Origin: Acidobacteriota bacterium
GTDB taxonomy: Bacteria; Acidobacteriota; Terriglobia; Bryobacterales; Bryobacteraceae
Assembly (NCBI GenBank): GCA_025353165.1
Contig: JANXRE010000091.1
Span: 1 to 64,000, forward strand
Length of the DNA: 64,000 nt
Direction of reading: 5' to 3'
Shown here: positions 9,257 to 59,271 of the stretch, piece after piece
Position numbering within the stretch: the stretch's first letter is position 1
How the letters are laid out: the number at the start of each line of letters is the position of its first letter
The notes under the pieces: model-generated
Told to the model about the DNA's origin: nothing
Database searches by the model: none
What the model saw: only the letters and a program-made list of their open reading frames with translations
Program-made: the position numbers and the translations under genes

Positions 9257-9769
9257 ATGCGAATCTTGATCTGGGCCATCGCGCTGCCCCTGTGCGCGCA
9301 GAATCCGGTAACGGATGTGGTGCGTACAAACTACGAGCGTTTGAAGCAGGACATGGTGGAAACCGCCGAGCTCATGCCGGCGGCCAGCTACGATTTCAAG
9401 CTCACGCCGCCGCAGCGCCCTTTTTCCGGCTGGATCGAGCATACGGCCATGGGCAATTACCGGATGTGCTCGATGATGCTCGGGCGCGCGGAGCCGGATG
9501 CTTCCAAGGGCGTTCACGGCCTCGCCGCGAAGGACGATCTCGTCAAGGCGCTGCGGGAATCGTTCGCTTATTGTGACGGCGCCCTGAAGGAGATGGACGA
9601 CACCAAGGCGGTCGCGGAAATCGTGTTCAACGGCCGGAAGTATCCGGCGGTACAGGTCATGATCGGGCTGGTGGCATCCCTGAGTGAGCACTACGGCAAC
9701 CTTGTGGGATACTTGCGGACGAAGGGAATCGAACCGCCGTCGACGTCTCGCGCGTCCAGGAAGAAATAA
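9257..9769 (+). CDS. DinB-fold secreted protein
   Basis: 170 residues. A short hydrophobic leader (MRILIWAIALPLCAQ) looks like a signal peptide. The rest is a four-helix DinB/YfiT-like bundle: NYERLKQDMVETAELMPAASYDFK, a region around residue 55 with WIEHTAMGNYRM where the His could be a metal ligand, and a final SLSEHYGNLVGYLRTKGIEP helix carrying a second His. This placement of histidines is typical of DinB proteins, which often act as metal-dependent thiol transferases or remain unassigned. It begins 4 bp after ftsK and ends 5 bp before the likely selenoprotein gene, so the two probably share a transcript. The link to thiol chemistry is inference. Confidence 0.8.
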   Translation: MRILIWAIALPLCAQNPVTDVVRTNYERLKQDMVETAELMPAASYDFKLTPPQRPFSGWIEHTAMGNYRMCSMMLGRAEPDASKGVHGLAAKDDLVKALRESFAYCDGALKEMDDTKAVAEIVFNGRKYPAVQVMIGLVASLSEHYGNLVGYLRTKGIEPPSTSRASRKK

Positions 9770-9774
9770 CATCC

Positions 9775-10320
9775 ATGCTACGGAAACTAACTTCTCTTGC
9801 TGTACTAACCGGGATCGCAGCATACGCGGTCAATCTGCCGAGGCCCGCCGCGGAAGTCGCCATAGTCACGCCTAAAGGCGACCAGGAACTGCTGTCCAAA
9901 TACCGGGGCAAGATCGTCATCCTGACGTTTATCCTCAGCACCTGACCGCACTGCCAATTCACCACTCAGGTTCTGAGTGGCATTCTGGACGAATACAGCA
10001 AGCGCGGCGTGCAGGCGCTGGATGCGGCCTTCAACGACGAGGCGGACATGGCGGATTACGTGAAGCGTTTCCACCCGAATCACCCGGTAGGGAAGGTGAG
10101 CCGCGAGTTCATGGCCGACTACGCGCAGATCACGCCGATGATGCGAGTGAGTGTGCCGATCATGTTATTCATCGACCGGAAAGGCATGATCCGGTCGGAA
10201 TACTTCGGCAACGAACCGTTCTTCAACCCGGAGTCGGCGTTGAAGAGCAACATAAAGGCGGAGTTGGACAAGTTGCTGCTGGACGACAAGCCTGCGGCGA
10301 AGAAGAAGAACCGCAAATGA
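9775..10320 (+). CDS. Selenoprotein: exported thioredoxin-fold (TlpA/AhpC-like) protein with in-frame TGA (Sec57)
   Basis: From the ATG at 9775 (AGGAAG 11 nt upstream) the frame gives a hydrophobic leader (MLRKLTSLAVLTGIAAYAV), then a TlpA/AhpC-type fold: KGDQELLSKYRGKIVILTFI, the active site ST-(TGA)-PHCQF, a helix VLSGILDEYSKRGVQALDAA, the cis-proline region MRVSVPIMLFIDRKG, and a Lys-rich tail ending at TGA 10318. The TGA at 9943-9945 is codon 57 and lies exactly where the first Cys of a CPHC redox motif belongs. The frame is conserved-looking on both sides, with no frameshift. A perfect hairpin follows at 9962-9980. I therefore read Sec at 57, giving a UPHC site and 181 residues. Conventional calling would leave only a leaderless fragment beginning near 10009-10069. 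The alternative is a Cys-to-stop nonsense mutation in a recent pseudogene; the SECIS-like hairpin argues against it. Expected role: periplasmic thiol-disulfide or peroxide redox chemistry. Confidence 0.85.
9962..9980 (+). promoter_or_regulatory. Bacterial SECIS-like hairpin downstream of the in-frame TGA
   Basis: CCACTCAG (9962-9969) pairs perfectly with CTGAGTGG (9973-9980) around the loop GTT (9970-9972). If the two apical pairs open, the loop becomes AGGTTCT, close to the AGGUCU apex that SelB binds in E. coli fdhF. The loop begins 24 nt after the TGA, within the 16-37 nt window used for bacterial SECIS elements, and a G is the first loop base, as required. The element lies within the coding sequence, as bacterial SECIS elements do. 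Confidence 0.82.
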
Positions 10321-58441: not shown

Positions 58442-59271
58442 TGCTGGAGGTGATCGTAACCGCGGACCGGCAGCGGCTCGCCGTTTAGAAGCACAAGCCC
58501 CGGCCGCCCCGTTGTTATGCCGCCGATGCGGATTGCGCCCTGAGGCGATTTGCGCCGCGCCGGCATGGTCCACAACAGTTCGTAATCCTCGCCTTGGTCC
58601 ATGGTCTGCCCTTTTCGCAACGGGACGTTCTCTACTGCCGCCGCAACTCCCGATGCCAAACACAACCGGTGCAAGTCCAGCGACAACCCGTCGGTGAGGT
58701 CCATGCACGCCGTGGCGCGGCCGCGCAGCGCCAGCCCCAATTCGATTCGCGGCACAGGCCGCCGGTACTCGCGCCAGTCCCGCCCCAGCCGTCCGCTGAC
58801 GAAAATCGAATCGCCGGCGCGTGCGCCATCGCGCCGCAGCGCGCGCCCTTTCGGAACCGCGCCACACACCACGATGTCGCACAGCACACGATCCGAATGC
58901 GACAGGTCGCCGCCCGCAAGATCGACGCGGAAGCGCTTCGCCAGCTTCAGAAACCCGGAATAGAACGAATCGATCCAGCGCCGGTCGCAGTCCGGCGCGA
59001 GCGCCAGGGAAAGCAGGCAGAATCGCGGTTCGGCACCCATGGCTGCGATGTCGCTCAGCCCCCGCGCAAGCGCCTTATGACCGATGTCCGCGGGCGAGTA
59101 AATGTCCCGCTCGAAGTGTACCCCTTCGAGAAGGAAGTCCGTTGTGAAAACGAGATCTTCGTTGACTCGCGGACGCCAGATCGCACAATCGTCGCCGATG
59201 CCCGAGATCAGCGCGGGGTGAACGGACCGCACTTTTCCCGCCAGCCGGCTGACCAGCTCGATTTCGTTCAC
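58438..59271 (-). CDS. thiL: Thiamine-monophosphate kinase
   Basis: 277 residues from GTG 59269-59271, which overlaps the Hsp70 gene's stop (GTGA); in-frame sequence upstream of this is a shadow. Motifs: SGIGDDCAIWRP, VFTTDFLLEGVHFERDI, VDLAGGDLSHSDRVLCDIVV, MDLTDGLSLDLHRLC and MDQGEDYELLW, all of the PurM-like ThiL fold. Phosphorylates thiamine monophosphate to the active diphosphate. The family is often about 320 residues, so it is on the short side. No other thi genes are present. Confidence 0.92.
   Translation of the reverse strand: MNEIELVSRLAGKVRSVHPALISGIGDDCAIWRPRVNEDLVFTTDFLLEGVHFERDIYSPADIGHKALARGLSDIAAMGAEPRFCLLSLALAPDCDRRWIDSFYSGFLKLAKRFRVDLAGGDLSHSDRVLCDIVVCGAVPKGRALRRDGARAGDSIFVSGRLGRDWREYRRPVPRIELGLALRGRATACMDLTDGLSLDLHRLCLASGVAAAVENVPLRKGQTMDQGEDYELLWTMPARRKSPQGAIRIGGITTGRPGLVLLNGEPLPVRGYDHLQQ

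What the first reader, a model, noticed from the sequence alone, without database searches (positions are those of the whole stretch)
9775..10320. A hidden selenoprotein: exported thioredoxin-fold enzyme with UPHC active site
The reading frame from ATG 9775 to TGA 10318 is continuous except for TGA at 9943-9945. That codon falls exactly where the first Cys of a CPHC redox motif belongs in a TlpA/AhpC-like fold, and sequence on both sides keeps family features (leader peptide, cis-Pro loop). Seen directly: the frame, the TGA and the hairpin. Known: bacterial selenoproteins commonly replace a catalytic Cys in UxxC motifs. Inferred: Sec incorporation. Automatic annotation would either split the gene or keep only a fragment starting near 10009.
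Basis: partly seen in the sequence, partly recalled or inferred. Interest (0 to 1): 0.92.

Follow-up and report, generated by a model that had tools for sequence, protein, structure and literature searches.

The report
Secreted selenocysteine thioredoxin-fold enzyme
A soil-type Acidobacteriota bacterium carries a gene that looks broken by a stop codon but almost certainly encodes an exported redox enzyme with selenocysteine in its active site; the kind is known, and its relatives seem to have swapped selenium and sulphur versions several times.

Summary
The frame 9775-10320 is open except for TGA 9943-9945, which stands where homologues have the first Cys of a CPHC motif. Of 166 distinct homologues read (165 from the same bacterial family), 146 have Cys there, 20 have TGA, none anything else. 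Eleven TGA genes were found by protein similarity alone; nine came from a hairpin model built on ten of those eleven. All 11 have a hairpin starting 17 nt after the TGA with 6-7 of 7 stem pairs; the stem shows compensatory changes, and Cys homologues average 3.0 pairs. The genome has selA, selB, tRNA-Sec(UCA) and a selD with its own TGA. The protein models as a TlpA/ResA fold and has a probable export leader. Selenoproteins of this kind (PF00578, UxxC) are published, so this is a new member of a known kind. Less ordinary: Sec and Cys versions are interleaved on the tree (about nine switches, five forced by well-supported branches; a single Sec clade is rejected, AU p 8e-5), yet the Sec genes share nearly one SECIS sequence. 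The direction of the switches is unresolved. Selenium incorporation and enzyme activity are unshown.

The parts
9775..10320 (+). Selenoprotein gene: exported TlpA/ResA-like thiol:disulfide oxidoreductase, 181 residues with Sec57
   Evidence: Frame read directly; PF00578 32.8 bits, cut-off 26; 146 Cys and 20 TGA among 166 homologues; AlphaFold model mean pLDDT 92.6
9943..9945 (+). In-frame TGA read as selenocysteine (residue 57)
   Evidence: Aligned with the first Cys of the CxxC-type motif of Cys homologues; TGA at the same place in 20 of 166
9952..9954 (+). Codon of the second active-site residue, Cys60 (U-P-H-C)
   Evidence: C60 invariant in the 33-row alignment A3
9962..9980 (+). SECIS-like hairpin: arms 9962-9968 and 9974-9980, loop GGTTC
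   Evidence: In A1 (10 rows) 95.7% of cells paired against 28.6-37.1% when slid; 3 of 7 pairs with changes on both sides; R1 63.7 bits here, the window being one of its 10 source rows
9775..9837 (+). Probable export leader (about residues 1-21, hydrophobic, with an AYA site)
   Evidence: Read from the sequence; similar leaders in homologues; no signal-peptide predictor was run
10156..10158 (+). Codon of Pro128, at the cis-Pro position of the thioredoxin fold
   Evidence: Invariant in A3; aligned with the Pro at the same place of 3hdc; cis geometry not measured
9257..9769 (+). DinB_2-like gene ending 5 bases before the start codon, possibly co-transcribed; not shown to be part of the function
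   Evidence: PF12867 25.0 bits, cut-off 24.8; besides the window's own locus the protein was found in 1 of the loci searched, L071

Best explanation
The gene encodes a selenoprotein. During translation the hairpin at 9962-9980 binds SelB carrying Sec-tRNA(UCA), and the UGA at 9943-9945 is read as selenocysteine (established bacterial mechanism; inferred here from anatomy and comparison). The product is exported by its leader and folds as a TlpA/ResA/DsbE-like thioredoxin domain. Sec57 then acts as the attacking residue and Cys60 as the resolving residue (UPHC), so the enzyme exchanges disulfides or reduces an oxidised substrate in the periplasm through a selenenylsulfide intermediate. Shown by computation: frame, aligned U/C position, conserved hairpin, machinery genes, predicted fold. 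Inferred: selenium incorporation, export, chemistry. The substrate and the direction (oxidant or reductant) are unknown; a reductant role is only the more usual one for this fold (recalled).
For: TGA exactly at residue 57 in 20 of 166 distinct homologues, Cys in the other 146; 11 of those TGA genes came from a search blind to the hairpin. In those 11, 6-7 of 7 stem pairs form; compensatory changes in 3 of 7 pairs, covariation score 0.286 with 0 of 500 shuffles as high (10 rows). The hairpin exceeds synonymous-codon resampling at p < 0.05 in 16 of 20 Sec genes and in 2 of 145 Cys genes. Own genome: tRNA-Sec 74.7 bits, anticodon TCA; selB 377.9 bits; selA 481.2 bits; selD 361.6 bits with one TGA, in G-U-A-S-K near its N-terminus. 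tRNA-Sec is found in 19 of the 20 genomes in which a TGA copy was seen against 136 of the other 180 searched (Fisher p 0.035). Fold: 3gl3 Z 20.2 and ResA 2f9s Z 19.0.
Against: No protein-level evidence. G075, which has a TGA copy, shows no tRNA-Sec (72% complete assembly). tRNA-Sec is common in the family anyway (155 of 200), so the co-occurrence is weak support. A 7-pair stem alone is common after TGA in this window (218 of 1580). Nine of the 20 TGA genes were found with the hairpin model, so their hairpins are not independent evidence. The number of further pair types in the stem is no higher than in shuffles (4 against a mean of 4.9). An own-genome paralogue has ordinary Cys (C187, 40% identity), so the Sec copy need not be essential.
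Confidence: 0.95

Rival explanations
1. A pseudogene: the TGA is an ordinary nonsense mutation in a CPHC protein gene, and the hairpin is chance.
For: A stem of this length follows many TGA triplets (218 of 1580); a Cys paralogue exists in the genome.
Against: The same codon is TGA in 20 genes of 11 genus groups (handles), with a shared hairpin that covaries in the 10 rows tested; full Sec machinery is present.
Confidence: 0.02
2. A sequencing or assembly error at a TGC/TGT codon.
For: The window is from one draft assembly of 200 contigs; raw reads were not available.
Against: The same substitution at the same codon in 20 separate assemblies, each with the hairpin that Cys copies lack.
Confidence: 0.01
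3. Two separate genes, or termination at 9943: a short peptide and an internal start near GTG 10009.
For: An ORF from GTG 10009 exists.
Against: That fragment lacks both active-site residues and the N-terminal part of the fold; the Cys homologues are read through this place as one frame.
Confidence: 0.01
4. UGA read as another residue, such as Trp or Cys, by near-cognate decoding without selenium.
For: UGA read-through at low level is known in general (recalled).
Against: Every homologue without TGA has Cys there, never Trp (146 of 146); a SECIS would have no purpose; SelD itself has a TGA near its N-terminus, a usual Sec position (position recalled).
Confidence: 0.01

Closest known systems
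Prx-like thiol:disulfide oxidoreductase selenoprotein (PF00578, UxxC/UxxU; reference WP_010940744.1 in the table of PMC13188914, passages seen; the group is also in PMC1794560 and PMC9312934, passages seen)
   Same: Same Pfam family above cut-off and a UxxC motif.
   Different: Sequence relation to that reference not tested. This subfamily looks nearly confined to one Acidobacteriota family: of 396 phylum genomes 3 matched at E <= 1e-20, two of them in the family and one outside (a stricter limit than the 1e-10). It has a probable export leader and the motif UPHC.
ResA / DsbE / TlpA thiol:disulfide oxidoreductases
   Same: Fold: 3gl3 Z 20.2, rmsd 1.8 over 139 residues; ResA 2f9s Z 19.0; CxxC-type site and Pro128.
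   Different: Sec in place of the first Cys; a CPHC-type site (3c71 in the list is, by its title, a ResA variant with a DsbA-like CPHC motif); NCBIfam ResA 30.5 bits, far under its cut-off of 170.
ResA-like WAxxUGC selenoprotein (NF041054)
   Same: ResA-like and Sec-containing by its name.
   Different: Motif UGC, not UPHC; 17 bits against cut-off 300. The own genome has a separate WAxxUGC-type gene (L089).
Redoxin family selenoprotein (PF08534, UxxC; HEU0032618.1 in the table of PMC13188914, passages seen)
   Same: UxxC and a related Pfam model.
   Different: PF08534 scores 23.5 bits here, under its cut-off of 26.6.

Membership tests
Bacterial selenoproteins (UGA, SelB, SECIS) | In-frame UGA aligned with a catalytic Cys of homologues | tested here: met
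   20 TGA, 146 Cys, 0 other of 166
Bacterial selenoproteins (UGA, SelB, SECIS) | Conserved SECIS hairpin just downstream of the UGA | tested here: met
   bSECISearch itself was not available
Bacterial selenoproteins (UGA, SelB, SECIS) | selA, selB, selC, selD in the genome | tested here: met
Bacterial selenoproteins (UGA, SelB, SECIS) | Selenium in the protein | not testable with these tools
   Needs 75Se labelling or mass spectrometry
TlpA/ResA-like thiol:disulfide oxidoreductases | AhpC-TSA domain above Pfam cut-off | tested here: met
   32.8 bits, cut-off 26
TlpA/ResA-like thiol:disulfide oxidoreductases | Thioredoxin fold nearest to ResA/DsbE structures | tested here: met
TlpA/ResA-like thiol:disulfide oxidoreductases | Two redox residues and a Pro opposite the active site | tested here: met
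   U57, C60, P128; these columns are invariant in A3, where residue 57 was entered as Cys
TlpA/ResA-like thiol:disulfide oxidoreductases | Export to the periplasm | not tested
   Leader read by eye only
ResA proper (NF002854) | NCBIfam cut-off of 170 bits | tested here: not met
   30.5 bits
Prx-like thiol:disulfide oxidoreductase selenoproteins (PF00578, UxxC) | PF00578 plus UxxC | tested here: met
   definition from PMC13188914 and PMC9312934
Selenocysteine peroxiredoxin | PxxxTxxU motif (PMC13188914) | tested here: not met
   Residues 50-57 are LTFILSTU: no Pro at 50, no Thr at 54

The most novel reading that the evidence does not exclude
In this Acidobacteriota family (apparently Bryobacteraceae) a TlpA/ResA-like protein has switched between selenocysteine and cysteine many times, within genera and even between tandem copies. 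Because Sec copies from 10 genus groups (11 with a divergent paralogue) share almost one SECIS sequence, the likelier history is an old selenoprotein that was turned to Cys repeatedly, or whose active-site stretch was exchanged by recombination, contrary to the mainly Cys-to-Sec direction reported in 2006.
Probability: 0.4. Interest if true: 0.55.

Novelty: new member of a known kind. Interest (0 to 1): 0.42.

Why it matters
Read with ordinary stops, the gene falls to a fragment, so annotation can miss it. It adds a probable exported selenoenzyme to a phylum for which the papers I saw list only a few selenoproteins (4 in PMC1794560; 3 in the one Acidobacteriota genome of PMC12013277 that the passages show). 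Its family offers matched Sec and Cys versions for asking why a cell keeps or gives up selenium. PMC1794560 (passages and part of the abstract seen) reports Sec/Cys replacement as mostly one-way, Cys to Sec; this subfamily is a dense data set to test that.

Tried and rejected
Decay was rejected because the stops sit at one codon. Chance hairpin was rejected by comparison, not by the single sequence. Peroxiredoxin was rejected as the class because the PxxxTxxU motif is absent. General SECIS fossils in Cys homologues were looked for and not found: 2 of 145 Cys genes exceed synonymous resampling at p < 0.05, no more than chance would give; neither likeness to the SECIS (Spearman -0.04, p 0.64) nor excess pairing (0.11, p 0.19) goes with nearness to Sec genes. 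Two Cys copies may be single fossils: L065 of G093 (6 of 7 pairs, altered loop, p 0.003 before correction, R1 30.6 bits), beside the Sec gene L056 of the same genus; and the copy of G063 (12 of 13 core letters but 4 of 7 pairs, p 0.29, R1 36.6 bits). A first genome-contig scan with the single protein found nothing. The second used an alignment whose pattern demands Cys (CPHCQ), so it could show only Cys copies; 80 of 192 were kept. A plasmid search gave four TlpA-type hits of 28-31% identity. Organism: no name is given for the window; Bryobacteraceae is inferred from titles of named records whose contigs match those of the same family group.

Limits and dropped rows: the match list is capped, and nearly all but not all of its listed places were fetched (G137:C140 was not), so 20 of 166 is not a random sample. 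L063 was dropped as a repeat of L026; L095, a 26% paralogue, was left out by choice; repeats of one gene were removed by sequence. One of the 166 genes (L097) is from outside the family. A truncated L062 copy was left out of the trees. L117-L119 were left out, which used 40 of the 145 Cys rows. The tree includes the SECIS-coded residues; those mask them. Several Sec rows, the window's among them, have long branches. One search read two loci on the wrong strand; repeated correctly. Part of the output was cut; the L089 gene hidden there was read.

Full report
Observation. The frame from ATG 9775 to TGA 10318-10320 is open except for TGA 9943-9945. Read with that codon as one residue, the protein has 181 residues, a hydrophobic leader, the motif U57-P-H-C60 and a VP128 loop. 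A mechanical ORF list keeps only GTG 10009-10320 of this frame. The domain is PF00578 AhpC-TSA, 32.8 bits over a cut-off of 26.

Machinery. The genome that holds the window (contig C118; 98.4% complete) has one tRNA-Sec over the Rfam cut-off, 74.7 bits, which ARAGORN also calls tRNA-Sec with anticodon TCA. Of the eight weaker matches four were examined, and all four are tRNA-Ser. SelB matches at 377.9 bits, SelA at 481.2, SelD at 361.6 with one in-frame TGA. That TGA lies near the SelD N-terminus, in G-U-A-S-K, a usual Sec position in SelD (recalled). Of 14 control genomes the curated cut-offs were passed by 5 (tRNA-Sec), 2 (selB), 1 (selA) and 2 (selD).

Homologues. A protein search of 200 genomes of the family gave matches in 193 at E <= 1e-10 (the list of places is capped). 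I read 50 loci first: with L063 (a repeat) left out, 54 genes, of which 11 have TGA and 43 Cys at residue 57. A covariance model R1 of the hairpin region, built from 10 of those 11 genes, was run on all 237 genomes held for the family: 34 had a match at E <= 0.001, and 17 matches were at 44 bits or more. Ninety-five more stretches were fetched. In the combined set of 166 distinct genes, 20 have TGA, 146 Cys, none another residue; 165 are from the family and one, L097, from another family of the phylum. The 20 TGA genes lie in 20 genomes of 11 genus groups. Nine of them were found through the hairpin model (six at 44 bits or more; three divergent paralogues, L117-L119, at 30-33 bits), so their hairpins are selected for; the other 11 were not. 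Outside the family the subfamily seems rare: of 396 phylum genomes 3 matched at E <= 1e-20, two of them in the family.

SECIS. In the ten-row alignment A1 the seven-pair stem has 95.7% standard pairs; sliding the partner by one to three columns gives 28.6-37.1%. Three of seven pairs have changes on both sides, and the covariation score of 0.286 was reached by 0 of 500 shuffles; the count of further pair types was no higher than in shuffles (4 observed, mean 4.9). In the 166 genes, the 20 Sec genes have 6 pairs (8 genes) or 7 (12 genes); the 146 Cys genes have 0-6, two of them 6. Against resampling of synonymous codons, the hairpin is in excess at p < 0.05 in 16 of 20 Sec genes and 2 of 145 Cys genes. 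In the 17 main Sec genes the loop begins GGU, as I recall for the E. coli fdhF element; in the three paralogues it begins AGU. For balance: a stem of seven pairs alone follows 218 of 1580 TGA triplets in the window.

tRNA-Sec and TGA copies. 155 of 200 family genomes have tRNA-Sec. Read from that list, 19 of the 20 genomes in which a TGA copy was seen have it; G075, 72% complete, does not. Against 136 of the other 180 this gives Fisher p 0.035 (counts entered by hand), weak support only.

Fold. AlphaFold with 33 sequences gives mean pLDDT 92.6 (Cys in place of Sec). Best structural matches are DsbE-like 3gl3 (Z 20.2) and ResA (Z 19.0); by sequence 3hdc, E 4.9e-7. Peroxiredoxins also match, lower (Z about 16). 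Hence a thiol:disulfide oxidoreductase of TlpA/ResA type is the most likely class. ResA usually has CEPC and works as a reductant; CPHC is the site of the oxidant DsbA (recalled; the title of 3c71 calls CPHC DsbA-like), so the direction is open.

History. On a 57-row tree Sec and Cys need 6 changes, all forced by starred branches. With SECIS-coded residues masked, 165 rows need 9, of which 5 are forced, and a 57-row subset with 17 Sec and 40 of the Cys rows again 9 and 5. One clade of those 17 Sec rows is rejected, AU p 8.2e-5; several long branches, the window's among them, call for care. Sec and Cys genes sit side by side in G075 (L026), and in one genus L056 has Sec while L065 and L036 have Cys; L049 (Cys) lies among Sec rows of its genus. 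The Sec genes nevertheless share nearly one SECIS: the window and L043, 38% identical in protein, are identical over 25 bases there, whereas other TGA genes of the own genome have other stems. I take this as a hint of one old origin and repeated loss, but the search for fossils found no general signal, and recombination is not excluded.

Literature. Passages of PMC13188914, PMC9312934, PMC1794560 and PMC12013277 were seen through term searches; none was read whole. They list Prx-like thiol:disulfide oxidoreductases with PF00578 and UxxC, and other TlpA- or redoxin-type selenoproteins. PMC1794560 counts 4 selenoproteins in the Acidobacteria of its time. No paper in the held library came up for UPHC with selenocysteine. 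The one for Bryobacteraceae with selenoprotein is on goats fed selenium, and of the four that hold three of selenoprotein, Bryobacter, Solibacter, selenocysteine and TlpA none names Solibacter and the one naming Bryobacter is the same goat study. The library lacks most subscription journals. So the kind is known, and I did not find this member described.

Verdict. A real selenoprotein gene by comparison, new member of a known kind, with an unusual pattern of Sec/Cys switching that merits a proper evolutionary study.

Noticed in passing
Own genome G000: L075, L076, L080, L089, L092 (with the window gene, 6 of 32 PF00578 matches have one in-frame TGA): Five further thioredoxin-fold genes with TGA at a likely redox site: Prx-like AFTGGU (L075), YWUPLC (L076), DWUPFC (L080), WAxxUGC type (L089) and a deiodinase-family YTUPPF (L092) (NCBIfam hits of the matched segments, all under cut-off). 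With SelD and the window gene that makes seven candidates; their SECIS elements were only folded singly, not compared.
   Followed up: partly
L117, L118, L119 (G070, G132, G109): A divergent paralogue (23-28% identity) with TGA at the same site and a related hairpin with loop AGT in place of GGT.
   Followed up: partly
L026 (G075:C27): A Cys copy and a Sec copy of the gene lie in tandem and are sisters on the trees.
   Followed up: partly
window 9257-9769: A DinB_2-like gene ends 5 bases before the selenoprotein gene; the same pair occurs in L071 beside a Cys copy.
   Followed up: partly
window 58783-59214 (-): A weak SelD-family match (56.1 bits, cut-off 125) in a 404-aa frame; perhaps another enzyme of that superfamily (guess).
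   Followed up: no
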